64,000 nt of DNA from Synechococcus elongatus PCC 11801 (GTDB lineage: Bacteria > Cyanobacteriota > Cyanobacteriia > Synechococcales > Synechococcaceae), in NCBI RefSeq assembly GCF_003846445.2, contig NZ_CP030139.2, forward strand, positions 248,001 to 312,000. The letters are read 5' to 3'. This document shows, in pieces, positions 136 to 28,700 of the stretch. The number at the start of each line of letters is the position of its first letter. The first letter of the stretch is position 1. Below the pieces are notes generated by a model. The model was not told the origin of the DNA. It searched no databases and saw only the letters and a list, made by a program, of their open reading frames with translations. The translations under genes and the position numbers were made by a program.

Positions 136-1137
136 CTATTTCCAAATCCAAACGGCGTCTTTGACCTTGATCGATTTAGGGATGAGATTTAGCGCGCGGA
201 AGGTGTCTGCAATTTCTTGCTGTTTTTGAATGACGGGGTTGGTGATGGGTAAGACATCGTGGGTGCGACGGTTTTCAGCGATGAGCAAGGTCTTAGGACT
301 GATACCCGTGGCTGAGGAAAGAAGATTGGCCGCCTTCGTTTTGTCTTTGTTGAGCAGTTGGGCTTCCTGCTTGAATTCCTTGAGGACGGTCTTGAGAGTC
401 TCTGGATATTTCTTGATGAACGAGGCAGAAGCGAGATAGTAGCCGCGGTTGGGCGCTAGCCCTTGGGCATTGGTCAGTAGACGACCACCGGCTTCCACTT
501 CGCCAGCGGCGAGGAAAGGATCCCAGACGACCCACGCATCGACATCCCGACGCTCGAAGGCAGCTCGGCCATCAGAGGGCTTGAGGTAAGAGATTTTGAC
601 GTCGCTGGGTTTGAGATTGGCCGATTTCAGCGCACTGATTAATAGGTAGTGGGTGTTGGAGCCTTTTTGGACCGCAATCCGCTTCCCTTTCAGGTCTGAC
701 AGTTTTTTGATGGGAGAGTTGCGATGAACAAGGATGCCTTCGGCCTTCGGCCCAAAGGGATCGTAGGCAACATAGCGAGTCACAGAGCCAGAGGCAGCTT
801 GCGCAAAGATGGGCGGGGCTTCGCCAACGTAGGCAATATCGATCGCGCCAGCATTCAGAGCCTCGACCATCGGCAGACCGGCAGTAAATTCTGACCAAGT
901 GGCAGAACTACCGGTTTTTTTGAGGGTTTTCTCTAGCGTTTTCTTGGCATTGACAGAGATAAGAACAGGGCCGGCTTTTTGGAAGCCGATGCGCACCTGG
1001 ACTTTTTCTTCTGGCTTGGCTGTAACGGGGGCGGAGTTCCCAAAAACTGTCACGGCTGTCGTCGCGGTGGCAGCAACGGCAACGCCCGCTAGCAAGGCTT
1101 TGACTTTGCGGCGGCCTAGAGCAGTTTTGAGAGCCAC
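136..1137 (-). CDS. ssuA: Aliphatic sulfonate ABC transporter substrate-binding protein
   Basis: 333 residues, the usual length for SsuA-type periplasmic binding proteins. The N-terminus has basic residues (RRKVKA) and a hydrophobic alanine/valine segment (about residues 14-33), a signal peptide. The mature part has typical family patterns: VRIGFQKAGP, MVEALNAGAIDIAYVGEAPP, LKGKRIAVQKGSNTHYLL, VDAWVVWDPF. It captures organic sulfonates in the periplasm for an SsuBC-type permease; those genes are not visible here, but ssuD follows directly. The start is GTG at 1137, with an AGAGGA stretch about 10 nt upstream. The exact ligand (sulfonate, taurine or other) cannot be read from sequence. Confidence 0.9.
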   Translation of the reverse strand: MALKTALGRRKVKALLAGVAVAATATTAVTVFGNSAPVTAKPEEKVQVRIGFQKAGPVLISVNAKKTLEKTLKKTGSSATWSEFTAGLPMVEALNAGAIDIAYVGEAPPIFAQAASGSVTRYVAYDPFGPKAEGILVHRNSPIKKLSDLKGKRIAVQKGSNTHYLLISALKSANLKPSDVKISYLKPSDGRAAFERRDVDAWVVWDPFLAAGEVEAGGRLLTNAQGLAPNRGYYLASASFIKKYPETLKTVLKEFKQEAQLLNKDKTKAANLLSSATGISPKTLLIAENRRTHDVLPITNPVIQKQQEIADTFRALNLIPKSIKVKDAVWIWK

Positions 1138-1684: not shown

Positions 1685-2356
1685 GTGGCCAAATGCACGG
1701 CTCCTCGAGAGGGCCATCGCTCAGCGAGCGCTGCTGCGAACTGCCCTGTATGCGGTGGTCGCTATAGACGCAATCAAGGCTACGGAACGTCTTTGTCCTA
1801 CTCTTCTTTGGGGAGCATCGAGGGCAGTCAGGGCAACAGTACAAGGCCCCATTGGTCTCCGGCCAGATCCTCTGTCGTCTACACTCCTACAGAAATACGA
1901 GCACTGACACCGATTTACAACAGTGTTGAGAAGCTAGCGACACTACCAAGCCTTTGGGATGTTTTCCTTTGCCACGCATGGGACGACCGTCAGGGCGCAG
2001 CCAAGAAGCTCCATGATCGATTGGAAGAACGTGGCCTGCAAGTCTGGTCCAGCAAGAAAGACGTTGGTTTCGGCGTGCCATTGCTATTATCTATTGACGA
2101 AGGTTTGGCGAACGCACGAGTCGGGATTGTGTTGGTGACCCCTGCGCTGCTGCACCGATTACCAACAGAGGGCATTACTGATAAAGACTTTTCAGAACTG
2201 CTTGCACGTGATCAGATCATTATCATCGTGCACGAAACAACGTATGAGGCTCTCCGTAACGTCAGCCCCCTACTGGCATCTCGTAGCGGACTGAGCACCG
2301 CAGAAGATTCAATGTCAACTGTTGCAGCCAAAATTGCTGAGCTTTTCGGCTTTTAG
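1685..2356 (+). CDS. TIR-domain protein with N-terminal zinc-ribbon-like segment
   Basis: 223 residues. The N-terminus carries two cysteines as CPVCGGRY (residues 20-27) plus Cys4, a possible small zinc site. Residues about 90-220 form a TIR domain: WDVFLCHAWDDR (beta1 and the A loop), GLQVWSSKKDVGFGVPLL (BB-loop region), SIDEGLANARVGIVLVTPALL, and DKDFSELL, where Glu171 sits at the position of the NADase catalytic glutamate. TIR domains in bacteria act as NAD-consuming effectors or nucleotide-signal producers in anti-phage defence. No partner gene is adjacent, so a complete defence system is not visible. Start: GTG with GAGG 8 nt upstream. It lies between RNB-tail copies R1 and R2. Confidence 0.8.
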   Translation: MAKCTAPREGHRSASAAANCPVCGGRYRRNQGYGTSLSYSSLGSIEGSQGNSTRPHWSPARSSVVYTPTEIRALTPIYNSVEKLATLPSLWDVFLCHAWDDRQGAAKKLHDRLEERGLQVWSSKKDVGFGVPLLLSIDEGLANARVGIVLVTPALLHRLPTEGITDKDFSELLARDQIIIIVHETTYEALRNVSPLLASRSGLSTAEDSMSTVAAKIAELFGF

Positions 2357-2665: not shown

Positions 2666-3661
2666 TTAAAAACGAATTTGAAGCCCAAGCTGCAGCCCTG
2701 TTTGAGTGATATCAAAGCTATTAGGGCTCGCATCCGTATTGCTTAAGTTTAGGCGGAGCGTTCGATAGGCCAGATTGAGGTTCGTCGAGTTTCCTATCTT
2801 AATTGCGGCACCCACAATGCCGTTAGCGCTGAGGTTTTCTCCACCGCCTAGACCAAGTCCACCAATATCTCCTCTGGCAAAGAGTGAAAATTCGGGCGTG
2901 ACGATCAGCTTCAGTTCACTGCCTAGCAAGGGCTGAACTTTGGTTTGCGATGAACTCAAAAAGCGCTGACTGCTGATCTCTCGTCGTCCTGTCCGTGAGG
3001 TACTTGAAACCTGTAGATCAAGGGATGTTGCAACATCGACCACCCGAACCCCCACATAGGGCGAGACAGATAGGACTAATCCCCCATTTGGATCAGGGCG
3101 ATCGCTACCAAAGCGATATTGAGCAGCGAAATCATAGATCCCTTGACTTGTGTTGACAGTTGTCGCTGCATCGATCGCACGAGTCCGTCCTCTTGGCCCT
3201 TCTAACACATTGATTGAACGTAGACCGCTGCCTTTTAAATCCACATAGTACAAGTCTGTAAAGAGTGCAAATTGATCCTTTTCAAGTCGAGCTCTTGCTG
3301 CTGCTGCAAAGGAGAGTGCTTCTAAAACTTGTCCCAGACCTGCATCAATATTGGCGGTTACTCCACGAACAGTAATCGGTCCTTGGACTCGGAGGGGAGC
3401 AAAAACATAGGGCTCGATACTAAATTTCCAGGCCTCTGATGACTCTGAGTCATTAGTTACTGACTGAGGGGATTCTGTCTGAGGGGATTCTTGGACTTCC
3501 GTGGAGATCAGCTTAGGCTGAGCATCACTCGATTCTAGGAGTGTATCGGCACGACTCTCTGGGGCTGTAGCTAATGTGAGGAGGCTCAGGCTAGCAACAG
3601 GTAGTAAAAAATATTTAAAGCCCACAATCCTCGGGTGATAGCTAGGTTGGTTCTTCATCAT
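2666..3661 (-). CDS. Secreted outer-membrane beta-barrel-like protein
   Basis: 331 residues. It has a signal peptide (hydrophobic FLLPVASLSLLTLATAPESRA, cleavage near residue 39). A Ser/Glu/Gln-rich linker follows (about 40-78), then alternating amphipathic strands such as WKFSIEPYVFAPLRV, FALFTDLYYVDLKG, YDFAAQYRFG, LSVSPYVGVRVVDV, FSLFARGDIGGLGLGG, and a C-terminus ending in LQLGLQIRF. A terminal aromatic residue after alternating strands is typical of outer-membrane barrels. It probably forms a small barrel in the outer membrane. It is divergent from the formylglycine-generating-enzyme/sulfatase pair; it could deliver their substrate, but that is inference. Two ATGs (3661, 3658) are possible starts. 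Confidence 0.65.
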   Translation of the reverse strand: MMKNQPSYHPRIVGFKYFLLPVASLSLLTLATAPESRADTLLESSDAQPKLISTEVQESPQTESPQSVTNDSESSEAWKFSIEPYVFAPLRVQGPITVRGVTANIDAGLGQVLEALSFAAAARARLEKDQFALFTDLYYVDLKGSGLRSINVLEGPRGRTRAIDAATTVNTSQGIYDFAAQYRFGSDRPDPNGGLVLSVSPYVGVRVVDVATSLDLQVSSTSRTGRREISSQRFLSSSQTKVQPLLGSELKLIVTPEFSLFARGDIGGLGLGGGENLSANGIVGAAIKIGNSTNLNLAYRTLRLNLSNTDASPNSFDITQTGLQLGLQIRF

Positions 3662-3900
3662 AAAGAGTGAGAAAGCTCTCGTAAAGCTCTTTCAAAAATC
3701 CTTCCGCGAACACTCAAACTGCCGAATTTTTGATGCTGGTGTATAGAAATAAAGGCTGTGATCGCAATGCATACTTAGTTTGAATTAAGAGATTTTCATT
3801 TGAATTGCACTTTAGTTACATAAACACTATTTCTGGGTCGCCGTGTCAGTCTGTGAAGGCTATTTGACCATCGTTTTGAACCGATGAATTGGCAGCCTGG
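3662..3900. promoter_or_regulatory. Divergent promoter region between the outer-membrane protein and the sulfatase-maturation gene
   Basis: 239 bp, AT-rich in the middle (about 3720-3840), the only space for promoters of both divergent transcripts. No individual -10/-35 boxes or operators can be fixed with confidence. Confidence 0.35.
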
Positions 3901-4932
3901 ATGGGTAGATTGAAGCTTCCTGACCCTTGGTATCAAAGGCTTGGGTTCTTTTGGCTATGGAGTCTTTGCTTGGCCGGACTTCTGCTGTGGGCTCAGCCTG
4001 CTTGGGCTTGTCCCCCTGAGATGGTTGCTATTTCGGGCGGCACGTTTCGCTTGGGCGCTGCCGCACAATTACCTGAAGAGCAGGCCGTTGACGATGTTCG
4101 CCTCTCTACGTTTTGTATCGATCGCCACGAAGTAACCAACGATCAATTTCTCGCCTTTGTGAGCGCGACTGGCTACGTCACTGTGGCAGAGCGGCCGCTG
4201 CTATCTGACCAGTTTCCCGAGCTGAGTCCAGCAGAGCGAGCCCCAGGCTCAGTGGTTTTTCAAGCTCCAGAAGCCAATCAAGCGGTTCCAGAATTGAGTT
4301 GGTGGCATTGGGTTCCCGGTGCCAACTGGCGACACCCGACGGGACCCAACAGTGACCTCGTGGGCAAAGGGGATCATCCTGTTGTCCATATGGCTTTTGA
4401 AGATGCCCAAGCCTATGCTGATTGGGCAGGCAAAACCCTCCCCACCGAAGCCCAATGGGAGTTTGCGGCACGGGGCGGGCTCAAAGATCAAATTTTTAGT
4501 TGGGGCAACACCTACTCACCCCGCAAAGCCAACACTTGGCAAGGGCATTTCCCTAAGGACAATAGCGGTGCGGATGGCTATCTTGGGACTGCTCCAGTCG
4601 AGTCATTTCCGCCGAATGGCTATGGCCTCTACGACATGACCGGCAACGTCTGGGAGTGGACAAAAGACTGGTACCAAGTAGGACATCCCCAGAAGGCACA
4701 CCAACATAATCCTTGGGTTAGTCAAGTTCAGGACAGTCTAGATCCCCGCGATCCCGGCATCGCCAAACACGTCATTAAAGGGGGGTCGTTTCTCTGTGCC
4801 CAGAACTATTGCAGTCGTTATCGGCCAGCCGCCCGCGAAGCCCAATCCCCTGATACGGGCACCTCTCACATTGGCTTCCGCTTGGTCGCGCCCCTAGAAG
4901 ACTTCTCACCATTACTGTCTGCTCATTCCTAA
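3901..4932 (+). CDS. Formylglycine-generating enzyme (sulfatase-modifying factor)
   Basis: 343 residues from the ATG at 3901; a TTG 12 nt upstream would add four residues. It has a hydrophobic N-terminal signal (LGFFWLWSLCLAGLLLWAQPAWA) followed by the SUMF1/FGE fold: MVAISGGTFRLGA, FCIDRHEVTNDQFLAFV, HPVVHMAFEDAQAYADWAGK, LPTEAQWEFAARGG, GNVWEWTKDWY. Near the C-terminus GGSFLCAQNYCSRYRPAARE holds the two catalytic cysteines (about Cys299 and Cys304), and IGFRLV closes the domain. FGE oxidises the Cys of a CxPxR motif in sulfatases to formylglycine; this one appears exported. Its presumed client starts 6 bp after its stop, so the two form an operon. Confidence 0.9.
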   Translation: MGRLKLPDPWYQRLGFFWLWSLCLAGLLLWAQPAWACPPEMVAISGGTFRLGAAAQLPEEQAVDDVRLSTFCIDRHEVTNDQFLAFVSATGYVTVAERPLLSDQFPELSPAERAPGSVVFQAPEANQAVPELSWWHWVPGANWRHPTGPNSDLVGKGDHPVVHMAFEDAQAYADWAGKTLPTEAQWEFAARGGLKDQIFSWGNTYSPRKANTWQGHFPKDNSGADGYLGTAPVESFPPNGYGLYDMTGNVWEWTKDWYQVGHPQKAHQHNPWVSQVQDSLDPRDPGIAKHVIKGGSFLCAQNYCSRYRPAAREAQSPDTGTSHIGFRLVAPLEDFSPLLSAHS

Positions 4933-4938
4933 GCTGCC

Positions 4939-7506
4939 ATGCCTAGCCTGTTCTCTCGACTTTGCTCGCGCCTGTCTCTCCGTCCGCTGCAGTCGGTTCT
5001 GGCTGGTTTTTTGGCGCTGATCCTGGTGATCTCAACCGGGTTTTGGTGGACTCCCGCGATCGCTCAAAAAATCACTGGAACCCCTGGAGCACCGGATGCC
5101 ACGACGACTATCCTCGGCAATCAGCTCCCAGCTCCCCCCTCGCCCTTTGGCGGTGTCATCAAGAATGGAGCCTTGCAGTCGAAGCCTTGGTGGGCACCCA
5201 GGATCGTTCCTCCGCAGCAAGCGCCTAATGTGCTGTTGATCATCACCGATGATGCTGGTTTTGGGGTGCCCAGTACCTTCGGTGGTGTGATTCCTACTCC
5301 AGCGATGGATCGTGTCGCCAAGGCCGGGCTGCGATACAACCGCATGTTCTCCACGGCGCTGTGTTCTCCCACGCGTGCCGCCCTGATCACCGGCCGCAAT
5401 CACCACTCCGCCGGTTTTGGAGTGATCTCGGAGCAGGCTACCGGTTTCCCTGGCTACAACAGCATCATCGAGCGCGACAAGGCCACGATCGGCCGCCTGC
5501 TCAAGGACAATGGCTATGCCACCGCCTGGTTCGGCAAGAACCACAACACGCCCGCCTTCCAGGCCAGCCAGAGCGGGCCCTTCGATCAGTGGCCCACGGG
5601 GATGGGCTTCGAGTACTTCTACGGCTTCGTGGGTGGGGACGCCAACCAGTGGCAGCCGAACCTGTTCCGCAATACCACCCAGATCTATCCCTTCGAGGGT
5701 AAGACTCCCGGCAGCTGGAACCTGGTGACCGCGATGGCGGATGACGCCATTGACTACATGACGCGGATGCACCAGATCAACCCCAGCAAGCCGCTGTTCA
5801 TCAAGTACGCCCCCGGAGCTACCCATGCTCCCCACCACCCCACCCAGGAGTGGGTGGACAGGATCCACGCCATGCATCTCTTTGATGATGGCTACGAGAA
5901 ACTGAGGGAACGAATCTTCGCGAACCAGAAGAAGCTCGGCGTGATTCCCAAGGACGCCAAGCTCGATCCTTGGCCTGCTGATCTGATTACGCCTTGGGAC
6001 CAGCTGAGCCCGGAGGCCCAGAAACTTTTCATCCGCCAGGTGGAGGTGTTCGCTGCTTACGCCGCCTACAGCGACTATGAGATCGGCCGGGTGATCCAGC
6101 AGTTCGAAGACCTCGGTAAGCTCGACAACACGCTGATCATCTACATCAACGGCGACAACGGCACCAGCGCCGAAGGCGGCCCGCTAGGTACCCCTAATGA
6201 GGTGGCCTGGTTCAACGGCCTCAACATGCTGCCCGTCGATGTTCAGATGAAGTTCTTCGACGTGTGGGGCACCGACCAGACCTACAACCACATGTCGGCG
6301 GGTTGGTCGTGGGCTTTCGACACCCCTTTCAGCTGGTTCAAGCAGAACGCCTCCCGCCTCGGCGGCGTGAATCAGAACATGGTTGTGTCGTGGCCAGCGC
6401 GGATCAAGGACAAGGGCGCTTTGCGTGAGCAGTTCGTGCACGTGATCGACGTGGTGCCGACCATCCTAGAGGCTGCGGGTCTACGGGCGCCAAATCTGGT
6501 GGACGGCATCCCCCAGAAGCCAATTGAGGGCACGAGCTTCGTTTATACCTTCGATGGCAAGAATGCCAAGGCGCCCTCAAGGCACGAGCGGCAGTATTTC
6601 GAGATGTTTGGGCAATGGGCTCTCTATGACAAGGGCTGGCTGCTGAGCACAAAGGTGAACCGTGCTCCTTGGGAGTCCTTTGGCCCGGCTAACCCCGATC
6701 CGCTCAACAACCAGACGCTGGAGCTCTACGACCTCAAGCGTGACTTCAGCCAGACCACCGACTTGGCAGCCCAGAATCCGCAGAAACTGAAGGAGATGAA
6801 GGAGGCGTTCATTGCCGAGGCGAAGAAGTATCAGGTGTTCCCGCTTGATGCCTCGGTAGCGGCGCGGATCGTGGCGCCACGGCCAAACATCACCGCCGGA
6901 CGCCGTGAGTTCGTCTACACCCGGCCGATGGTGGGGCTGCCCCAGGGCGATTCACCCCTGCTGCTCAACACCTCCTACAGCGTCACTGCCGACATCGAGG
7001 TGCCGGCTGGCGGCGCCGAGGGCATGCTGCTGACCTCTGGCGGCCGCTTCGGTGGCTATGGCTTCTACCTCAAGAATGGCAGGCCCGTTTGGGTGTGGAA
7101 CATGGTGGATCTGGAGCGCCTGAAGTGGGAGGGAACCGAGCCGCTCTCGCCTGGCAAGCACAAGGTCGCGTTCGATTTTGTCTACGACGGCAAGGGGACC
7201 GGCACCCTGGCCTTCAACGACTTCAGTGGCGTTGGCCGCCCCGGCACCGGCACCCTCAAGGTGGATGGTCAAGTGGTTGCGACCAAAACTATGCCCAAAA
7301 CCCTGCCGATGATCCTGCAGTGGGATGAAAGCTTTGATATCGGCTCTGATACGCTCACCGGTGTTAATGACGCTGACTACCAGCCTCCATTCCGCTTTAC
7401 TGGCAAGCTCAATAAGCTGACTGTGACGGTCAATCGACCTCAGCTGTCACCCGCAGATATCAAGGAGTTGGAGGCAACGATGCGCACCAAGGCTATTAGT
7501 GACTAG
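4939..7506 (+). CDS. Exported arylsulfatase (formylglycine-dependent)
   Basis: 855 residues. Signal peptide at residues 1-34 (LAGFLALILVISTGFWWTPAIA). The sulfatase domain starts at APNVLLIITDDAGFG (metal-binding Asp pair) and holds the signature LCSPTRAALITGR, with Cys142 as the residue converted to formylglycine. Further conserved pieces are WFGKNHNTP, IIYINGDNGTSAEG and FVHVIDVVPTILEAAG. The C-terminal 200 residues look like a beta-sandwich. It hydrolyses sulfate esters outside the cytoplasm; the substrate is unknown. The 5' end carries a HIP1 site (5056-5063). The body from about 5330 to 7270 uses strongly C/G-ending codons and no HIP1, unlike the flanks, suggesting an imported or recombined core. 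Confidence 0.92.
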   Translation: MPSLFSRLCSRLSLRPLQSVLAGFLALILVISTGFWWTPAIAQKITGTPGAPDATTTILGNQLPAPPSPFGGVIKNGALQSKPWWAPRIVPPQQAPNVLLIITDDAGFGVPSTFGGVIPTPAMDRVAKAGLRYNRMFSTALCSPTRAALITGRNHHSAGFGVISEQATGFPGYNSIIERDKATIGRLLKDNGYATAWFGKNHNTPAFQASQSGPFDQWPTGMGFEYFYGFVGGDANQWQPNLFRNTTQIYPFEGKTPGSWNLVTAMADDAIDYMTRMHQINPSKPLFIKYAPGATHAPHHPTQEWVDRIHAMHLFDDGYEKLRERIFANQKKLGVIPKDAKLDPWPADLITPWDQLSPEAQKLFIRQVEVFAAYAAYSDYEIGRVIQQFEDLGKLDNTLIIYINGDNGTSAEGGPLGTPNEVAWFNGLNMLPVDVQMKFFDVWGTDQTYNHMSAGWSWAFDTPFSWFKQNASRLGGVNQNMVVSWPARIKDKGALREQFVHVIDVVPTILEAAGLRAPNLVDGIPQKPIEGTSFVYTFDGKNAKAPSRHERQYFEMFGQWALYDKGWLLSTKVNRAPWESFGPANPDPLNNQTLELYDLKRDFSQTTDLAAQNPQKLKEMKEAFIAEAKKYQVFPLDASVAARIVAPRPNITAGRREFVYTRPMVGLPQGDSPLLLNTSYSVTADIEVPAGGAEGMLLTSGGRFGGYGFYLKNGRPVWVWNMVDLERLKWEGTEPLSPGKHKVAFDFVYDGKGTGTLAFNDFSGVGRPGTGTLKVDGQVVATKTMPKTLPMILQWDESFDIGSDTLTGVNDADYQPPFRFTGKLNKLTVTVNRPQLSPADIKELEATMRTKAISD

Positions 7507-7600
7507 ATCACCGGATTCTTGACTGATGAAATTGGATCAACGCCCATCGCAAGCTATGGGGCTGGTATTTGGAAATAGAAGGAAATCTTTTTAAGTAAAC

Positions 7601-7714
7601 AGCTCCACGCTGCTGGGCTCTGTGGTTAAGAAAGCAGATATTTAGGGGCGATCCGCTCCCTCGAAAGTGAGGGCAAGGGAATTGGCAGCGCTGATAGTGA
7701 TGAAGGGAGTTAGC
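7601..7714 (+). repeat. R3: shared leader plus RNB-gene 3' tail copy
   Basis: Leader AGCTCCACGCTGCTGGGCTC to TTTAGGGG resembles the R2 leader. Then GCGATC plus CGCTCCCTCGAAAGTGAGGG continues along the parent 3' end (about 21747-21815), including AATTGGCAGCGCTGATAG. One inserted base after GCGATC breaks the parent frame, so this copy is non-coding. It is followed by the palindrome GCTCTCTA-AGGGGA-TAGAGAGC at 7718-7739. Confidence 0.7.
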
Positions 7715-15710: not shown

Positions 15711-15775
15711 GCCGGTCTGAATTCCTCATAAACCCAACCTGTTGTCGTTTCTGTTCTTTCCCCGTTGGTGTGGTC

Positions 15776-18700
15776 ATGGCGAATGCATCCTTGAATCTCT
15801 CTGCTCTCAATGGCAGTAATGGCTTCCGCATTAACGGCATTAATGAATTTGACTTCTCTGGCCGTTCTGTTAGTAATGCAGGGGATGTGAACGGGGATGG
15901 CATTGATGACCTCATCATCGGGGCTTTTGGTGCCGATAACTTTACTGGTCAGAGCTATGTGGTCTTTGGCTCTCGCAATAGCTTTGGTAGCAACCTAAAT
16001 CTCTCAGCTCTTAATGGCATTAATGGTTTCCGTATTGATGGCATTAATGCATTTGACTACTCTGGCTGGTCTGTGAGTAGTGCTGGAGATATCAATGGGG
16101 ATGGCATTGATGACCTTATTATCGGAACTAATCGCGCCGGCCTTAACGGTAACGCTGGTGCTGGTCAAAGCTATGTGATTTTTGGTAAGGATGTAGCGCG
16201 GCAGGGAAGCTTTGATCCCGTTTTAGCACTGTCGAGCTTGAATGGTAGCAATGGTTTTCGTATCAATGGCAACGGCATTGATCCCTCTTATTCTTCTGGA
16301 TTTTCTGTGAGTAATGCCGGGGACATCAATGGAGATGGCATTGATGACCTCATCATTGGAGATCCATTTCCCAGCAACAACACTGGTCAGAGCTATGTGA
16401 TTTTTGGCAAGAAGGGGGCAACTCGAGCTGACATCAATCTCGTGACTTTTGCTCCCGAGGATGGCTTCCGCATTAATAGTTCTCTCGCTAATAGCTTCTT
16501 CAGCTTCTCCGTCAGTAATGCAGGGGATGTGAACGGGGATGGCATTGATGACCTCATTATTGGGGCTTATCGTGATCTCGTTGATGACAGACCTGAATCT
16601 GGTCAGAGCTATGTGATTTTTGGCAAGAAGGAGTCTCGGGCTGATATCAATCTTGCCACCCTCAATGCTAGCGATGGCTTCCGCATCACTGGCATGAAAT
16701 CAGGGGATCGTTCTGGCTTTTCTGTCAGTAATACAGGGGATGTGAACGGGGATGGTATTGATGACCTCATCATTGGGGCTCCGTTTGCCAGCCCTGATGG
16801 CAAGTTATATTCCGGTCAGAGCTATGTGGTGTATGGAAAGCTAGGGGCAACTCGAGCTGACATCGATCTCTTAACTTTCGCTCCCGATGATGGTTTCCGC
16901 ATCAATGGAATAAAATCAGATGACCGCTCCGGCCGTTCTGTCAGTAATGCAGGGGATGTGAACGGGGATGGCATTGATGACCTGATCATCGGGGCTCCGT
17001 TTGCTGACCCAAACGGCGACTCTTCTGGTCAGAGCTATGTGATTTTTGGCAAATTAGGGGCGACGCGGGCTGACATCAATCTGGCTACCCTTGATGGCAG
17101 CGATGGCTTCCGCATCAATGGCATTAGTGATATTAACTACTCCGGCTTCTCTGTCAGTAGTGCTGGGGATGTTAATGGGGATGGCGTTGATGACCTCATT
17201 ATTGGGGCTTATGCTGCCAACAACACTGCTGGCCAGAGCTACGTAGTCTTTGGCAATGCCGCACCCGTTCTTGACCTCGATGGTGCTGCGACGCCATCAC
17301 AGAACTTCAGCACTGTCTTCACCGGCACATCAGTCTCGGTCGTGGGTTCAGGACTCACCATCAAAGACCTCAACTCTCCAACGCTGGCTGCGGCGACGGT
17401 GACCTTGGTCAACCGGCCGGATGGAACAGCAGAATCGCTGAGTGCAATCACCACCGGCACCTCGATCACTGCGAGCTATGACAGCAATACCGGCGTGCTG
17501 TTGCTCTCGGGTATTGCTTCTGTGGCGGACTATCAGCAAGTCCTGCGCACTGTCACCTACAGCAATAGCTCGAGTGCCGCAGACCTAGATTTAAGCCGCC
17601 GCCGGATTGAGTTCGTGCTCGATGATGGCTCTGACTTTGCCAACACCAGTGCCGTTGTCACGACAACCGTGACGGTCCTCAAGCTCCCCTTGGCTAGCAA
17701 AACGAGCGTTAGTCTCTCCGCTCTCGATGGCATCAATGGCTTCCGCGTCAATGGCATTGTCGCTTCTGACTTCTCCGGCTATTCCGTAAGCGGTGCGGGG
17801 GATGTGAATGGAGATGGCATCGATGACCTGATCATTGGGGCTTTTGGTGCCGATCCCAACGGCATTGATAGAGCCGGTCAGAGCTATGTAGTCTTTGGCA
17901 AGAAAGGGGGCTTTAGTGCTGACATCGATCTAGACTCTCTCACTTCCAGCGATGGCTTCCGCATCAATGGCATTGCGGCAGGTGATGAGTCCGGCCGTTC
18001 AGTGAGTAATGCGGGGGATGTGAATGGCGATGGACTCGATGACCTGATCATTGGGGCTCTTGGCGCTAACCCCAATGGCAACACTAATAATTCTGGCCAG
18101 AGCTATGTAGTCTTTGGCAAGAAAGGGGCGACGCGGGCTGATATTAATCTCTCTACCCTCGCCCCTAGCGATGGTTTTCGTATCAACGGCATTGCGGCAT
18201 ATGACCAATCCGGTATTGCGGTAAGCAATGCGGGGGATGTGAATGGCGATGGCATTGATGACCTGATCATTGGAGCGAATCGTGCTGACCCCAATGGCGA
18301 TATTGATGCTGGTCAGAGCTATGTGGTGTACGGGAAGGAAGGAGCGACGCGGGCTGACATCGATCTCTCCTCTTTCGCCCCTAGCGATGGCTTCCGCATC
18401 AATGGCATTAATGCAGATGACCGCTCCGGCTTTTCAGTGAGCAATGCGGGGGATGTGAATGGCGATGGACTCGATGACCTCATCATTGGGGCTCAATTTG
18501 CCGACCCTAATATGAACTTGAGTTCCGGTCAGAGCTATGTAGTCTTTGGCAAAAAAGGGGCGACGCGGGCTGATATCGATCTCTCCACTTTCGCGCCCAG
18601 CGATGGCTTCCGCATCAATGGCATTGCGGCATTTGATAACTTCGGCCGTTCAGTGAGCAGTGCGGGGGATGTGAACGGCGATGGACTCGATGACCTGATC

Positions 18701-20350
18701 ATTGGGGCCTCATATGCTGACCCCAATGGCATTAATGGTTCTGGTCAGAGCTATGTAGTCTTTGGCAAGAAAGGGGCGACGCGGGCTGATATTAATCTCT
18801 CCACCCTTGCCCCTAGTGATGGCTTCCGCATCAATGGCATTGCGGCAAATGACCTCTCCGGTTTTTCGGTGAGTAATGCGGGGGATGTCAATGGCGATGG
18901 CATCGATGACCTGATCATTGGAGCCATTGGTGCCAATCCCAATGGCATTAATGGTTCTGGTCAGAGCTATGTAGTCTTTGGCAAGAAAGGGGCGACGCGG
19001 GCTGATATTAATCTCTCCACCCTTGCCCCTGGTGATGGCTTTGCCATCAACGGCATTGCGGCAAATGACCTCTCCGGCCGTTCTGTGAGCGGTGCGGGGG
19101 ATGTCAATGGCGATAGCATCGATGACCTGATCATTGGAGCGAATGGTGCCGACCCTAATGGCAGTCAGTCCGGCCAGAGCTATGTGGTCTTTGGTAATGC
19201 CGCACCCATTCTTGACCTCGATGGCTCTGCCACGCTATCCCAGGACTTTGGTGCGGTCTTCACTGGCACACCCGTCTTGGTGGTAGGAGCAGACCTCACT
19301 ATTGAAGACCTCAATTCTCCGACCCTGGCTGCAGCGACCGTGACCTTGGTCAATCGACCCGATGGCACGGCAGAGTCGCTGAGTGCCATCACCGATGGCA
19401 CCTCCATCTCTGCTCGCTACGACAGTAATACCGGTGTGCTGTTGCTCTCAGGGCTGGCTTCCGTGGCGGACTATGAACAAGTCCTGCGCACCGTCACCTA
19501 CACCAATAGCTCGAATCTGGATCGCAGTGCCCGCACGATTGAGTTCGTGCTTGATGATGGCTCTGACTTCGCCAACACCAGTGCACTGGTCTCCACAACG
19601 CTGAGCTTCAATCGCGCACCCACGGATCTGGCGCTGAGCAATACCGCGATCACTGAGAACGCGGTCGTGGGCGACGGTATTAAAGTTGCCGATATCACCA
19701 TCACTGACCCTGACACCACGGGCAATAACAACGTCCTGTCCCTCGCAGGAGATGATGCTGCTTCCTTCGAAATCCGCGGAACTGAACTCTTCTTTGTCGG
19801 CTCCAGTCCTGATTTCGAAACCAAGCCCAGTTACGCCATCACCATCACGAGTACTGATGGCAGCTTGGTCTATAGCGAACCCTTCACCATCAATGTCACG
19901 AACCTAAATGAAATCACTGGATCGCAACGATCGAACTTCCTCGTTGGATCGAAGGGCAATGACTTTATCACAGGACTCGGAGGCAATGACTTCCTGTTTG
20001 GGGGGGGTGGAAATGACATCTTGATAGGCGGTTCTGGTCAAGACTTCCTGTCTGGTGGTGCTGGCAATGACCGCTTCGTCTACACCGCTGTTTCTGACGC
20101 TCGAGACTTGATCGTCGACTTCAATGTCAAGCAAGACAGTCTGGATTTGAGTGTGCTGTTGGATAGTCTGGGGTACAAAGGCTCTAATCCCCTCGCCGAT
20201 CAAGTCCTGCGCTTCAGTACTCAACTGTTCTTAGGAACCACGGTATCTGTCAATGCGGGTCTGGGTGGAGTGCCGGACTTTGTCCCACTGGTGACCTTGT
20301 TGGGGGTCTCCTCCTCTGACTTGCTCTTGGGTGACAACATCTTGATTTGA
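15776..20350 (+). CDS. FG-GAP double-propeller protein with cadherin-like and RTX calcium-binding C-terminus
   Basis: 1,524 residues from the ATG at 15776 (a GTG lies 6 nt upstream). It contains 14 FG-GAP repeats, each with SVSNAGDVNGDGIDDLIIGA-like calcium loops and QSYVVFGK. They fall in two blocks of seven (about residues 1-495 and 640-1143), each followed by a near-identical ~140-residue domain starting APVLDLDG or APILDLDG. Then comes a cadherin-like domain (about 1280-1380, NRAPTDLALSNTAITENAV). Last is an RTX tail (GGNDFLFGGGGNDILIGG, GGAGNDRFVY), the signal class for type I secretion. Seven FG-GAP repeats make one complete integrin-alpha-like propeller, so two propellers are inferred. 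It is probably an extracellular or surface adhesin. No secretion genes are adjacent. I see no HIP1 site in the gene. Confidence 0.88.
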   Translation: MANASLNLSALNGSNGFRINGINEFDFSGRSVSNAGDVNGDGIDDLIIGAFGADNFTGQSYVVFGSRNSFGSNLNLSALNGINGFRIDGINAFDYSGWSVSSAGDINGDGIDDLIIGTNRAGLNGNAGAGQSYVIFGKDVARQGSFDPVLALSSLNGSNGFRINGNGIDPSYSSGFSVSNAGDINGDGIDDLIIGDPFPSNNTGQSYVIFGKKGATRADINLVTFAPEDGFRINSSLANSFFSFSVSNAGDVNGDGIDDLIIGAYRDLVDDRPESGQSYVIFGKKESRADINLATLNASDGFRITGMKSGDRSGFSVSNTGDVNGDGIDDLIIGAPFASPDGKLYSGQSYVVYGKLGATRADIDLLTFAPDDGFRINGIKSDDRSGRSVSNAGDVNGDGIDDLIIGAPFADPNGDSSGQSYVIFGKLGATRADINLATLDGSDGFRINGISDINYSGFSVSSAGDVNGDGVDDLIIGAYAANNTAGQSYVVFGNAAPVLDLDGAATPSQNFSTVFTGTSVSVVGSGLTIKDLNSPTLAAATVTLVNRPDGTAESLSAITTGTSITASYDSNTGVLLLSGIASVADYQQVLRTVTYSNSSSAADLDLSRRRIEFVLDDGSDFANTSAVVTTTVTVLKLPLASKTSVSLSALDGINGFRVNGIVASDFSGYSVSGAGDVNGDGIDDLIIGAFGADPNGIDRAGQSYVVFGKKGGFSADIDLDSLTSSDGFRINGIAAGDESGRSVSNAGDVNGDGLDDLIIGALGANPNGNTNNSGQSYVVFGKKGATRADINLSTLAPSDGFRINGIAAYDQSGIAVSNAGDVNGDGIDDLIIGANRADPNGDIDAGQSYVVYGKEGATRADIDLSSFAPSDGFRINGINADDRSGFSVSNAGDVNGDGLDDLIIGAQFADPNMNLSSGQSYVVFGKKGATRADIDLSTFAPSDGFRINGIAAFDNFGRSVSSAGDVNGDGLDDLIIGASYADPNGINGSGQSYVVFGKKGATRADINLSTLAPSDGFRINGIAANDLSGFSVSNAGDVNGDGIDDLIIGAIGANPNGINGSGQSYVVFGKKGATRADINLSTLAPGDGFAINGIAANDLSGRSVSGAGDVNGDSIDDLIIGANGADPNGSQSGQSYVVFGNAAPILDLDGSATLSQDFGAVFTGTPVLVVGADLTIEDLNSPTLAAATVTLVNRPDGTAESLSAITDGTSISARYDSNTGVLLLSGLASVADYEQVLRTVTYTNSSNLDRSARTIEFVLDDGSDFANTSALVSTTLSFNRAPTDLALSNTAITENAVVGDGIKVADITITDPDTTGNNNVLSLAGDDAASFEIRGTELFFVGSSPDFETKPSYAITITSTDGSLVYSEPFTINVTNLNEITGSQRSNFLVGSKGNDFITGLGGNDFLFGGGGNDILIGGSGQDFLSGGAGNDRFVYTAVSDARDLIVDFNVKQDSLDLSVLLDSLGYKGSNPLADQVLRFSTQLFLGTTVSVNAGLGGVPDFVPLVTLLGVSSSDLLLGDNILI

Positions 20351-21827: not shown

Positions 21828-22743
21828 AGCGATCGCGGCCTCAGAATTTTCGAGACAGACTGTATTGCAAGATCCGAGGCAGCACTATAGTATTGTGGGA
21901 TACATAGCTAATGTCTTGCTCACTGATGAAGCCTAAAACTATCCAGTTTTAACCTTCTAAATCATGTTTTTATTTAAACGAGCTTGCACAGTCGAAATTT
22001 GAGCGGAATTTCTCCCATCGTGCGATGAGTTCATCATCACCTCTAGGCGTAGTTGTAGAAAGTCACGACACGTATTGGACAAGAGTGATTGACAGAGCAA
22101 TTTAAGCAACTGCTCTAAATTTTGCGACTGAAGCCATAGGTAAGGCTGACGTTGCTTTTTCAGCCACTACTTTTACGGCTGCTAGACCTTTCTTTTTCTG
22201 GTCATTGCTGTGAAGTACTGACAGCTCGAGCTGCCAAACTCTTCCATATTATCTTTTCCTACCTCGCTACCACTTGGAGAGGAACAAGAGCTGAATCTAG
22301 AGGGGATCTCTCTGAAAGGCTGGACGTCCTAATGCCAGGGGAGAAGCTTCTCTGGTGATGGCTTGATCGTTAACTTTAATTCTAATTTTAAGCTCTTAAG
22401 CTGACAGCCATAATGAGGCGACAGCAGTCTTAGATGAGTGCGAAATCATCATTCCTCCCAAGCAGTCTGTCACTATATTTTTCATATTTTTAATTCCTTT
22501 TATCCCAGACTGGGACTGGGTTAAGGGCTTGGATAGCGTGAGGTTTAATCACTAGTTTCCAACTACTGGTTAAACATGATTGTTCCGGCAACTCATGTCT
22601 AAAGATGAAGGAATTTGAGAAATTTTTCCCGAAAACTTGGGTAAGGTAATTAAAGTGCCTCTGTCCATTTGGCCAGCCTTCCCAAGGATAGATTCTTGAT
22701 GGGGGGTAATTGTCGTGTCAACTATTAGCTAGGTAGTTTTGTG
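21828..22743. other. About 915-bp gene-free region between the RNB gene and the giant repeat protein
   Basis: Mostly AT-rich. On the minus strand 22150-21957 there is an open stretch reading WLKKQRQPYLWLQSQNLEQL then LKLLCQSLLSNTCRDFLQLR to a stop. It looks protein-like but has no ATG and has stops just upstream, so it is probably a gene remnant. The rest (22360-22740) has no recognisable gene and likely carries the long promoter/leader of the giant gene. A 68-residue plus-strand ORF (22152-22358) has no protein-like features. Confidence 0.45.
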
Positions 22744-25700
22744 ATGGGATTGTCTCCTTCCAACTCTGATTTAAACAACAACACTGGGATCTTGAGCACA
22801 GCAGTTTCGTTGTTTACCTATGAGGAGTTATCGAGCACCCAAGTAGAACTTCTGACGCCTCTCCAATTGTTGGTTCAAGAGCAACTATCAACTTGGTTTA
22901 ATCAAGAGGACTACTTAACACAGCTTGCAATTCCTTTTAGTGCGACAGCAGGAACCGAGAGCTGGATAGCTAATGCTGAGGTCTTGCGCCAGTCGATCTT
23001 GGATGGCAGCTATTCAATTCGTCTAGAGGTGCGATCGGGCGCAGATCTCAATGGGGCATTAGGGGCATATAGTGCCACGGATACCACAGGGCAACCTACA
23101 GTTTATTTGAATGGAGATTGGTTAGCTTCAGCCAGTGCTGCGCAGATTCAAGCAGTCTTGCTCGAAGAGATTGGCCATGACTTTGACAATCGACTTAACA
23201 ATGGAGTTGATAGCCTTGGTGACGAAGGCGAAATCTTCGCAAATCTTGTGCAGGGCAATGAATTTAATCTTGCTGCTTTGCAGCAGAGTGCTGATCAAGC
23301 GCAAATTAATCTTGATGGTCAAGCTATTTCTATTGAGCAATCAGCACCAACAATTGATGTTGGTGGCGTTTTTCTTAACTTCAATGGTCCTCAGTTGCAA
23401 AGTGGTACTGCTTTGCAAGCTGGCGCAGTCTATAAATATACAAATATTGCCACTGTCGGTGGAGTTCAGATTAACGCCTTGATCACAGTTGCCAGTATTA
23501 GCGCTGGTACAACACTAACAAATATTGATACAGACGCAGGTGTTAATTATACAGTTGGCTCGCAAACATTCAACGGTACAAATTTTTGGAGCCCAACAAT
23601 TACAACAACAGGAGCAGGCGGAAACGTTAGTTTCAGAGTTGAGTTTCAGAACAATGCCGACAATAGTCCTATTATCCTAACAAACCTATACAACAATTCT
23701 ATCGACTTAGATGGTAGTGAGTTTGTTGAATATGGAGGTTTTTCACAATACCAAGTATCCAATATCACAGGGCTTCCAAGGACTCGTACAGCAGGGACTA
23801 CTAGTACATCGAGCGGTACAAATACAAACTTAACAACTCCCACTGAAATAGCTGCTGCTGCCGGTACAGGGGGGCAAGTTCGGTTTGTTAATACACCTCA
23901 AACAACTTATTCAAATAGTGCTACAGGACTAATTCTTAATGATGAAGGAAGAGTCCAAACACTCTTCGATAGCGCTAGTTCTTTTACCATCACGTTAGGT
24001 ATTAATGGAGCAGCAACCAATAGACAGTTTGGCTCAGTCTTTGCATTTATTCCGTTTGCAAGTACTCCCACGACTGTCACTACACCCACTGTCAACTCCC
24101 AAATCACTAACGACACTACCCCAACAATTACGGGTACGGTTGGCAATACAGTGCTGGGTGGATCAGAGCCTTTTACTGTTGTTGTTAATGGTGTTACATA
24201 CGACAGAAATAATGCCAGCTTAACAATTAACGGACTGACTTGGAGCCTAACTATTCCCAATGGAAATGCTCTAGTCCAAAACACTTACAACGTTACTGTT
24301 ACTCGAAATAACGTCCTCGTCGATCAAACTGCCGGCGAATTAATCATTGATACCACTGCTCCGACTGTCACGATTACGGATGACGAGCCAGGAACAGGAA
24401 ATATTGCTGGCGGGGATATTGTCTATACCTTTACCTTCAACGAAGCCGTTACAGGGTTCACTGCTGATGACATCACAGTAGCCAATGGCACGAAAGGAAC
24501 ATTTACCGCTGTCAGCCCAACAGAATACACCCTTGTTGTTACTCCTGATGCTGGCTTTGAAGGCAACATCACAGTCGATGTAGCAGCTGGTGTTGCCATT
24601 GATGCTGCAGGTAATCCCAATACTGCCGCAACTCAATCAGTTCAGCCGGTTGATACCGATGTCCCTGTTCCCACGATTACGGTTGATGCGGTAACAGCGG
24701 ATAACGTGATTAATGCGGCTGAAGCCGGTGGCACTGTTGCGATTACGGGCACTGTTGGTGGTGAATTCAATACTGGTGATACCGTCACGTTGACCATCAA
24801 CGGCAAGACCTTCACGGGTAATGTCGATGCCAATGGTGACTTCAGTATCGATGTTCCTGGTAGTGATTTAGTTGATGACCCTGACCTGACCATTGCTGCC
24901 AGTGTTGCCACGACCGATGCAGCGGGTAATCCAGGCAGTGCTTCCGACAATCAAACCTATACCGTTGATGCCGATGTCCCTGTTGTAACGATTGACAGCA
25001 TTAGTGAGGATAGCGGTGCTGCGGGAGACTTTGTCACTAATGACAACACTCTCGTCTTCAACGGCACTACAGAAGCGAATAGCACCGTTGTCATCAGCTT
25101 GGATGGCGTCGAAATCGGCACTGTGACTGCTAATGGCGCTGGCGAGTGGACGTTAGATTACACCGGCACTCCCTTAGTCGATGGTGACTATCAACTAAGT
25201 GTGACGGCAACCAATCCCGCTGGGAATAGTGCCAGCGCGACGCAAGCTATCACTGTTGATACTGATGTCCCTGTTCCCACGATTACGGTTGATGCGGTAA
25301 CAGCGGATAACGTGATTAATGCGGCTGAAGCCGGTGGCACTGTTGCGATTACGGGCACTGTTGGTGGTGAATTCAATACTGGTGATACCGTCACGTTGAC
25401 CATCAACGGCAAGACCTTCACGGGTAATGTCGATGCCAATGGTGACTTCAGTATCGATGTTCCTGGTAGTGATTTAGTTGATGACCCTGACCTGACCATT
25501 GCTGCCAGTGTTGCCACGACCGATGCAGCGGGTAATCCAGGCAGTGCTTCCGACAATCAAACCTATACCGTTGATGCCGATGTCCCTGTTCCCACGATTA
25601 CGGTTGATGCGGTAACAGCGGATAACGTGATTAATGCGGCTGAAGCCGGTGGCACTGTTGCGATTACGGGCACTGTTGGCGGTGAATTCAATACTGGTGA

Positions 25701-28700
25701 TACCGTCACGTTGACCATCAACGGCAAGACCTTCACGGGTAATGTCGATGCCAATGGTGACTTCAGTATCGATGTTCCTGGTAGTGATTTAGTTGATGAC
25801 CCTGACCTGACCATTGCTGCCAGTGTTGCCACGACCGATGCAGCGGGTAATCCAGGCAGTGCTTCCGACAATCAAACCTATACCGTTGATGCCGATGTCC
25901 CTGTTCCCACGATTACGGTTGATGCGGTAACAGCGGATAACGTGATTAATGCGGCTGAAGCCGGTGGCACTGTTGCGATTACGGGCACTGTTGGCGGTGA
26001 ATTCAATACTGGTGATACCGTCACGTTGACCATCAACGGCAAGACCTTCACGGGTAATGTCGATGCCAATGGTGACTTCAGTATCGATGTTCCTGGTAGT
26101 GATTTAGTTAATGACCCTGACCTGACCATTGCTGCCAGTGTTGCCACGACCGATGCAGCGGGTAATCCAGGCAGTGCTTCCGACAATCAAACCTATACCG
26201 TTGATGCCGATGTCCCTGTTGTAACGATTGACAGCATTAGTGAGGATAGCGGTGCTGCGGGAGACTTTGTCACTAATGACAACACTCTCGTCTTCAACGG
26301 CACTACAGAAGCGAATAGCACCGTTGTCATCAGCTTGGATGGCGTCGAAATCGGCACTGTGACTGCTAATGGCGCTGGCGAGTGGACGTTAGATTACACC
26401 GGCACTCCCTTAGTCGATGGTGACTATCAACTAAGTGTGACGGCAACCAATCCCGCTGGGAATAGTGCCAGCGCGACGCAAGCTATCACTGTTGATACTG
26501 ATGTCCCTGTTCCCACGATTACGGTTGATGCGGTAACAGCGGATAACGTGATTAATGCGGCTGAAGCCGGTGGCACTGTTGCGATTACGGGCACTGTTGG
26601 CGGTGAATTCAATACTGGTGATACCGTCACGTTGACCATCAACGGCAAGACCTTCACGGGTAATGTCGATGCCAATGGTGACTTCAGTATCGATGTTCCT
26701 GGTAGTGATTTAGTTGATGACCCTGACCTGACCATTGCTGCCAGTGTTGCCACGACCGATGCAGCGGGTAATCCAGGCAGTGCTTCCGACAATCAAACCT
26801 ATACCGTTGATGCCGATGTCCCTGTTCCCACGATTACGGTTGATGCGGTAACAGCGGATAACGTGATTAATGCGGCTGAAGCCGGTGGCACTGTTGCGAT
26901 TACGGGCACTGTTGGCGGTGAATTCAATACTGGTGATACCGTCACGTTGACCATCAACGGCAAGACCTTCACGGGTAATGTCGATGCCAATGGTGACTTC
27001 AGTATCGATGTTCCTGGTAGTGATTTAGTTGATGACCCTGACCTGACCATTGCTGCCAGTGTTGCCACGACCGATGCAGCGGGTAATCCAGGCAGTGCTT
27101 CCGACAATCAAACCTATACCGTTGATGCCGATGTCCCTGTTCCCACGATTACGGTTGATGCGGTAACAGCGGATAACGTGATTAATGCGGCTGAAGCCGG
27201 TGGCACTGTTGCGATTACGGGCACTGTTGGTGGTGAATTCAATACTGGTGATACCGTCACGTTGACCATCAACGGCAAGACCTTCACGGGTAATGTCGAT
27301 GCCAATGGTGACTTCAGTATCGATGTTCCTGGTAGTGATTTAGTTAATGACCCTGACCTGACCATTGCTGCCAGTGTTGCCACGACCGATGCAGCGGGTA
27401 ATCCAGGCAGTGCTTCCGACAATCAAACCTATACCGTTGATGCCGATGTCCCTGTTGTAACGATTGACAGCATTAGTGAGGATAGCGGTGCTGCGGGAGA
27501 CTTTGTCACTAATGACAACACTCTCGTCTTCAACGGCACTACAGAAGCGAATAGCACCGTTGTCATCAGCTTGGATGGCGTCGAAATCGGCACTGTGACT
27601 GCTAATGGCGCTGGCGAGTGGACGTTAGATTACACCGGCACTCCCTTAGTCGATGGTGACTATCAACTAAGTGTGACGGCAACCAATCCCGCTGGGAATA
27701 GTGCCAGCGCGACGCAAGCTATCACTGTTGATACTGATGTCCCTGTTCCCACGATTACGGTTGATGCGGTAACAGCGGATAACGTGATTAATGCGGCTGA
27801 AGCCGGTGGCACTGTTGCGATTACGGGCACTGTTGGCGGTGAATTCAATACTGGTGATACCGTCACGTTGACCATCAACGGCAAGACCTTCACGGGTAAT
27901 GTCGATGCCAATGGTGACTTCAGTATCGATGTTCCTGGTAGTGATTTAGTTGATGACCCTGACCTGACCATTGCTGCCAGTGTTGCCACGACCGATGCAG
28001 CGGGTAATCCAGGCAGTGCTTCCGACAATCAAACCTATACCGTTGATGCCGATGTCCCTGTTCCCACGATTACGGTTGATGCGGTAACAGCGGATAACGT
28101 GATTAATGCGGCTGAAGCCGGTGGCACTGTTGCGATTACGGGCACTGTTGGCGGTGAATTCAATACTGGTGATACCGTCACGTTGACCATCAACGGCAAG
28201 ACCTTCACGGGTAATGTCGATGCCAATGGTGACTTCAGTATCGATGTTCCTGGTAGTGATTTAGTTGATGACCCTGACCTGACCATTGCTGCCAGTGTTG
28301 CCACGACCGATGCAGCGGGTAATCCAGGCAGTGCTTCCGACAATCAAACCTATACCGTTGATGCCGATGTCCCTGTTCCCACGATTACGGTTGATGCGGT
28401 AACAGCGGATAACGTGATTAATGCGGCTGAAGCCGGTGGCACTGTTGCGATTACGGGCACTGTTGGTGGTGAATTCAATACTGGTGATACCGTCACGTTG
28501 ACCATCAACGGCAAGACCTTCACGGGTAATGTCGATGCCAATGGTGACTTCAGTATCGATGTTCCTGGTAGTGATTTAGTTAATGACCCTGACCTGACCA
28601 TTGCTGCCAGTGTTGCCACGACCGATGCAGCGGGTAATCCAGGCAGTGCTTCCGACAATCAAACCTATACCGTTGATGCCGATGTCCCTGTTGTAACGAT

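What the first reader, a model, noticed from the sequence alone, without database searches (positions are those of the whole stretch)
5056..7620. Mosaic sulfatase: host-like ends, foreign-looking core
The signal-peptide region has a HIP1 site and mixed codon use. From about 5330 to 7270 codons are dominated by C/G endings and no HIP1 occurs; the last 230 bp return to host-like usage. This suggests import by recombination inside the gene, with the native export signal retained.
Basis: partly seen in the sequence, partly recalled or inferred. Interest (0 to 1): 0.5.

Follow-up and report, generated by a model that had tools for sequence, protein, structure and literature searches.

The report
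Sulfatase gene with imported middle
A freshwater cyanobacterium's sulfate-scavenging enzyme gene appears to have had its middle three quarters replaced with the matching piece from a related genus, keeping its own ends; this is a clear example of a known process rather than a new one.

Summary
The gene is 4939-7506 (855 aa, PF00884 sulfatase), behind an FGE-type activating gene (3889-4932). GC3 is 0.59/0.82/0.60 across 5' end/core/3' end; host median is 0.61. Of 113 host ORFs this is the only one with GC3 >= 0.75. Absence of HIP1 adds little: 10% of equal host stretches lack it.

The import reading is supported by an independent line. Against 19 freshwater picocyanobacterial (Cyanobium-like) homologues, synonymous divergence is saturated in both ends (pS 0.69-0.78; 0.60-0.73) but 0.35-0.47 in the core. 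Among those 19 it is uniform (0.30/0.31/0.32). The excess survives correction for shared codon bias. The ends, the FGE gene and recA all show the old, saturated distance. Core third-position departures from the donor-group consensus run 35 GC->AT to 0 AT->GC, so the tract has been ageing in this AT-richer host. Breakpoints lie at 5296-5380 and 7255-7348.

Best explanation: homologous replacement of the core of a resident gene by Cyanobium-like DNA. The first junction falls between the metal-binding Asp pair and the catalytic Cys, or on the Cys motif. Tree topologies alone do not settle it. A good example of a known kind; interest moderate.

The parts
4939..7506 (+). Sulfatase gene, 855 aa, apparently exported type-I (formylglycine) sulfatase, mosaic
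   Evidence: ORF; PF00884 E 9e-51 over residues 96-514; best PDB sequence match an arylsulfatase chain (7all) at E 3e-54; 1hdh and related arylsulfatase chains at 5e-51 to 2.3e-50
4939..5325 (+). Resident 5' part: signal peptide and first strand with the metal-binding Asp pair; junction uncertain 5296-5380
   Evidence: GC3 0.592; pS to 19 Cyanobium-like homologues 0.69-0.78 over residues 41-125; change point
5056..5063 (.). HIP1 site GCGATCGC, the only one in the gene
5248..5253 (+). Codons Asp104-Asp105, expected metal ligands, in the resident part
   Evidence: position; invariant in 26 sequences; role by homology to known sulfatases (recalled)
5326..7300 (+). Imported core (Cyanobium-like); 3' junction uncertain 7255-7348
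   Evidence: GC3 0.819; pS 0.35-0.47; change point residues 126-794, dlnL 26.9, 0 of 300 permutations; all identical runs >= 20 bp to 5 relatives lie in 5329-7325
5362..5376 (+). Sulfatase signature C142-S-P-T-R146, Cys for formylglycine; inside the 5' junction interval
   Evidence: invariant in 26 sequences; breakpoint interval codons 120-148
7301..7506 (+). Resident 3' part (last 60-80 codons)
   Evidence: GC3 0.603; pS 0.60-0.73 over residues 790-855
3889..4932 (+). FGE / sulfatase-modifying factor gene, resident, probable operon partner (start codon as listed mechanically)
   Evidence: PF03781 E 1.9e-80; GC3 0.536, synonymous identity to Cyanobium-like 0.33-0.43; an FGE match lies on 36 of 108 loci with the sulfatase
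136..1137 (-). SsuA-type sulfonate-binding protein, part of a sulfur-scavenging cluster that continues left of the window
   Evidence: TIGR01728 E 1.2e-69, above cut-off; luciferase-like monooxygenase, ABC permease, ATPase and a second sulfatase in L093

Best explanation
A resident FGE-sulfatase gene pair sat in an accessory sulfur-scavenging region of this Synechococcus elongatus-like chromosome. DNA of a freshwater Cyanobium-like cell was taken up and its sulfatase paired with the resident gene; homologous (homeologous) recombination replaced about 1.95 kb, from about codon 126 to about codon 780-794, in frame. The resident upstream side, FGE partner, signal peptide and last 60-80 codons were kept. 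The result is an exported sulfatase whose Asp104/Asp105 metal ligands are resident while most of the catalytic domain and C-terminal domain are donor-derived; it is expected to hydrolyse sulfate esters for sulfur supply after FGE converts Cys142 to formylglycine. Shown: the mosaic, the donor group, the junction intervals, the direction of later codon drift. Inferred: natural transformation as the route, RecA as the engine, the host's name, export, the enzyme's activity and substrate.
For: GC3 break. pS to 19 Cyanobium-like homologues: ends saturated, core 0.35-0.47; 171 Cyanobium-like pairs uniform on average (0.30/0.31/0.32); Cyanobium-like against 3 Synechocystis-type homologues 0.63/0.69/0.71; window against those 0.76/0.72/0.73. 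Of 210 pairs among 21 sequences, the 19 window-to-Cyanobium-like pairs are the 19 largest in core-minus-ends synonymous identity. Codon-bias-corrected agreement: window-Cyanobium-like ends 0.11, core 0.34 (Cyanobium-like pairs 0.46/0.42; Cyanobium-like to proteobacterial 0.15/0.13; window to proteobacterial 0.02/0.11). recA synonymous identity: window-Cyanobium-like 0.42-0.49, window-G001 0.56, below the core's 0.66-0.74 and like the ends' 0.38-0.49. FGE 0.33-0.43. Runs >= 20 bp identical to 5 of the relatives: 20-28 each, none wholly outside 5330-7300. Core third positions: 35 GC->AT, 0 AT->GC, 6 other. Core nt tree puts the window inside the Cyanobium-like clade, 100/100. ComEC and DprA families present; strain PCC 11801, a likely near relative or the host itself, is reported naturally transformable (PMC6226537, passages).
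Against: Topology is not decisive: in the ends the window still sits with or next to the Cyanobium-like group (aa, 96*), and AU tests reject neither window-with-group in the ends (p 0.519), nor group-without-window in the ends (p 0.323) or in the core (p 0.266). The pS ratio end/core overlaps between window pairs (minimum 1.47 and 1.29) and the most uneven Cyanobium-like pairs (maximum 1.71 and 1.94). No donor closer than 89% in nucleotides was found. The core is uneven (corrected agreement 0.22-0.39 in blocks), so it may be more than one tract. Only one genome carries this allele; no reads or sister strains were checked.
Confidence: 0.9

Rival explanations
1. Reverse polarity: the whole gene came from a Cyanobium-like donor and its two ends were later overwritten by an older, diverged allele.
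For: The outcome would look the same inside the gene; the region is absent from G001, so no ancestral allele is seen.
Against: FGE next door and both ends share host-like GC3 and the same old distance; one central replacement needs one event, this needs two end replacements after a gene-bounded import.
Confidence: 0.06
2. No recombination: codon choice differs along one inherited gene because of selection on expression, folding or mRNA.
For: Position-dependent codon use is a known phenomenon (recalled); a giant repeat ORF in the same window has a comparable GC3 contrast.
Against: 171 Cyanobium-like pairs and Synechocystis-type comparisons show no such step on average; the codon-bias-corrected agreement with one lineage triples in the core; identical runs are confined to the core.
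Confidence: 0.02
3. Assembly chimera or contamination joined a Cyanobium-like gene with the host gene.
For: Only one genome with this allele is held; reads were not available.
Against: Two in-frame switches at homologous positions; no source sequence above 89% nt in the core; core third positions have drifted towards AT 35 to 0, which a fresh chimera would not show; the contig is 2.7 Mb in a 7-contig assembly.
Confidence: 0.02

Closest known systems
Mosaic genes made by homologous recombination between species (for example hybrid genes of hot-spring Synechococcus, PMC12755884, passages seen; mosaic penA genes, recalled)
   Same: Sharp switches of divergence inside a gene, reading frame kept, donor a relative.
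   Different: Here donor and recipient are of different genera with saturated synonymous divergence, and only one allele is known.
Type-I formylglycine sulfatases, arylsulfatase-like (PF00884; arylsulfatase 1hdh)
   Same: Catalytic domain, Asp pair and C-x-P-x-R motif.
   Different: Extra C-terminal region (about residues 640-855) not covered by the best PDB matches.
Sulfatase plus FGE gene pair of freshwater picocyanobacteria
   Same: Same gene order; sulfatase 87-92% identical in protein.
   Different: Here the ends, signal peptide and FGE are of another, older lineage.

Membership tests
Mosaic gene by homologous recombination | Divergence from one lineage changes abruptly inside the gene | tested here: met
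Mosaic gene by homologous recombination | The step is not explained by base composition or regional constraint | tested here: met
   codon-bias-corrected agreement, and other-pair controls
Mosaic gene by homologous recombination | Statistically incongruent trees for the parts | tested here: inconclusive
   trees differ in distance and nesting, AU p 0.27-0.52
Mosaic gene by homologous recombination | Both parental alleles identified (confirming, not strictly defining) | tested here: inconclusive
   donor group found (89% nt at best); no resident parent found, best ends match 88% aa; few same-genus genomes are held
Type-I sulfatase (PF00884) | Family profile above cut-off | tested here: met
   173.4 bits against 25
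Type-I sulfatase (PF00884) | C/S-x-P-x-R signature and metal-binding Asp pair | tested here: met
   C142-S-P-T-R146, D104-D105, invariant in 26 sequences
Type-I sulfatase (PF00884) | Sulfate ester hydrolysis | not testable with these tools
   needs an assay
FGE (PF03781) | Family profile above cut-off | tested here: met
   270.6 bits against 23.3; the family also holds non-FGE enzymes, and catalytic residues were not checked

The most novel reading that the evidence does not exclude
Selection favoured swapping the specificity-bearing core of an exported sulfatase for another genus's version while keeping the resident export signal, FGE partner and C-terminal tip, so the enzyme is a natural two-genus chimera with its active site assembled across the junction and possibly a changed substrate range.
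Probability: 0.2. Interest if true: 0.55.

Novelty: new member of a known kind. Interest (0 to 1): 0.38.

Why it matters
It is a clean case of recombination between genera at a level of DNA divergence where homologous exchange is usually thought rare (recalled), with junction intervals narrow enough to test in a transformable host. It warns that whole-gene trees or composition scans would misdate such a gene, and it shows that a catalytic core can be exchanged while the export signal and maturation partner stay.

Tried and rejected
HIP1 as evidence: rejected as weak. Topology as proof: inconclusive. I considered that GFB01 (L067) is a second mosaic because its ends group with CACIAM 14 (L052) in the trees; the per-segment check supports this at most for its 3' end (89% aa, synonymous identity 0.77 to L052; 79% aa and 0.69-0.76 to L013 and L016), not the 5' end, so I do not claim it. 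A structure model was poor (mean pLDDT 52.4); I draw no fold conclusion and ran no fold search. Plasmid search gave no close parent (best 73.8% over 91%, a Synechocystis plasmid). Promoter/terminator scan found about as many sites as shuffles.

Rows used: one search kept 80 loci of 97 confirmed; the 19-row Cyanobium-like panel is the picocyanobacterial subset with an FGE gene and a full ORF. Left out of it: L026 (my ORF extraction gave 271 aa), L029 (short contig, no FGE match), L031 and L034 (divergent residues 41-90; L034 also without an FGE match), L091 (partial), L052 (82%, outside the group), and G-handle loci L101-L104 (L102 was used in the trees and change-point panel; L101, L103 and L104 give segment values nearly the same as L016, L027 and L031). 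The change-point panel had 22 rows (L029, L031, L034 and L102 in, L067 out); the trees had 53 protein and 38 DNA rows. L004 was dropped from the alignment after (27% identity). The identical-run count used 5 relatives.

Full report
What is there. The ORF is 4939-7506 (855 aa), not 5056-7620. It is a formylglycine-type sulfatase (PF00884, 173 bits; best PDB sequence matches are arylsulfatases, E 3e-54 for 7all and 1.5e-50 for 1hdh). It starts with a basic, hydrophobic, AxA-ending leader that reads as a signal peptide (sequence; no predictor was run). Six bases upstream ends an FGE-family gene (PF03781), also with a leader-like start. To the left, in and beyond the window, lie a sulfonate-binding protein (TIGR01728 above cut-off) and, in L093, a luciferase-like monooxygenase, ABC permease, ATPases and a second PF00884 sulfatase: a sulfur-scavenging cluster.

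The host. Its genus holds one other genome here, G001, which lacks the sulfatase and the FGE and shows only short matches to window 1-14 kb; a long match resumes near 14.4 kb. This fits Synechococcus elongatus of the PCC 11801 kind: that paper (PMC6226537, passages seen) lists arylsulfatases, FGE, alkanesulfonate monooxygenase and transporter permease among proteins present there and absent from PCC 7942, and reports natural transformability. The identification is an inference.

Is the contrast real? Segment GC3 is 0.592/0.819/0.603. Among 113 host ORFs of at least 250 aa the median is 0.614, the 95% point 0.68, and this gene (0.766) is the only one at 0.75 or more. The best internal split (codons 125-775) has z 6.8, first of 52 long ORFs, though a 3669-aa Ig-like repeat ORF comes close (6.77); 0 of 200 synonymous shuffles reach it. 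The HIP1 argument is weak: 10.1% of host stretches of this length have none, and 26 of 27 related genes have none.

Is it an import? A scan of one genome per species kept 80 loci, the nearest from freshwater-type Cyanobium, Synechococcus, Aphanothece and Vulcanococcus (87-92% aa; names from record titles, 'freshwater' partly from strain names and recall); I call these Cyanobium-like. With 19 of them, pS is 0.69-0.78 for residues 41-125, 0.35-0.47 for 150-770, and 0.60-0.73 for 790-855. Residues 91-131 are 90-97% identical in protein to these yet only 74-83% in DNA, while core segments are 84-98% in protein and 80-92% in DNA. Controls are flat on average: 171 Cyanobium-like pairs 0.30/0.31/0.32; Cyanobium-like to Synechocystis-type 0.63/0.69/0.71; window to Synechocystis-type 0.76/0.72/0.73 (the Synechocystis label is my inference for G064 and G230, and L107 belongs to another family). 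Single pairs vary more: the end/core pS ratio reaches 1.71 and 1.94 in the most uneven Cyanobium-like pairs, above the lowest window pairs (1.47 and 1.29; means 1.87 and 1.69 against 0.95 and 1.02). By the difference in synonymous identity, though, the 19 window pairs are the 19 most discordant of 210.

Shared high GC could mimic relatedness. Correcting codon agreement for each sequence's own codon use leaves 0.11 in the ends and 0.34 in the core; seven proteobacterial homologues of similarly high GC3 give 0.02 and 0.11, Cyanobium-like pairs 0.46 and 0.42. So the core carries genealogical signal that composition does not explain.

Which part is resident? recA gives a vertical yardstick: window to Cyanobium-like 0.42-0.49 synonymous identity, window to G001 0.56 (one gene only). 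The ends (0.38-0.49) and the FGE (0.33-0.43) sit at that old distance; the core (0.66-0.74) is closer to Cyanobium-like genes than recA is to the sister species. The core is therefore the newcomer, and arrived after the split from G001's lineage, if codon constraint is comparable. Third-position departures from the Cyanobium-like consensus are 35 GC->AT, 0 AT->GC and 6 other, as expected of GC-rich DNA ageing in this host, and not of a recent chimera.

Junctions. A two-breakpoint fit gives residues 126-794 (3-lnL intervals 5296-5380 and 7255-7348), dlnL 26.9 against at most 10.9 in 300 permutations. Identical runs of 20 bp or more to five tested relatives number 20-28 each; none lies wholly outside 5330-7300, the outermost reaching 5329 and 7325. 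Stretch 7295-7319 is also identical between Synechocystis-type and several Cyanobium-like genes, so it could have served as a crossover site. The 5' junction lies between Asp104-Asp105 and, or on, the C142-S-P-T-R146 motif.

Trees. Core DNA puts the window inside the Cyanobium-like clade (100/100) and within an 8-row subset (95/97); core protein pairs it with GFB01 (SH-aLRT 92). Ends protein puts it in a 23-row clade (96) on a long branch, outside a 19-row set (87); ends DNA is unresolved. AU tests reject none of the alternatives tried (p 0.27-0.52). In the DNA trees the window's path to the nearest relative is 0.42 in the ends and 0.16 in the core. The exact donor stays open.

How it works. 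The expected function is ordinary: export, FGE oxidation of Cys142, sulfate-ester hydrolysis for sulfur supply. A freshwater-picocyanobacteria study reports such sulfatases in freshwater and not in marine strains (PMC9361551, passages). Competence families ComEC and DprA are present, so uptake and homologous replacement is the natural route; this step is inferred. Activity, substrate and whether FGE acts before or after export were not tested.

Verdict. It is a mosaic gene made by homologous replacement: a known kind, with an unusually wide donor-recipient distance. The literature searches (listings only, except the papers named) show no report of this mosaic.

Noticed in passing
window 22741-33750: 3669-aa ORF of bacterial Ig-like repeats (Big_13, Big_12) with DUF4114, in an almost HIP1-free stretch (21.8-33.7 kb), with a strong internal GC3 contrast of its own (z 6.77).
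   Followed up: partly
window 15770-20350: 1526-aa ORF of FG-GAP repeats with RTX-type calcium-binding repeats; a 74% DNA match covers most of it in G001.
   Followed up: partly
window 2666-3661: Outer-membrane-like protein with a 73% identical DNA copy about 18 kb away at G000:C1:232627-233651.
   Followed up: no
window 1685-2356: TIR-domain protein (PF13676) beside the sulfur cluster.
   Followed up: no
L067 6001-8577: The 3' end of the GFB01 sulfatase is nearer to CACIAM 14 (L052) than the rest of the gene is; possibly a second mosaic.
   Followed up: partly
L031 and L034, start of the sulfatase: Residues 41-90 only 40-46% identical to the window although the rest is about 91%: another replaced 5' part or a frameshift.
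   Followed up: no
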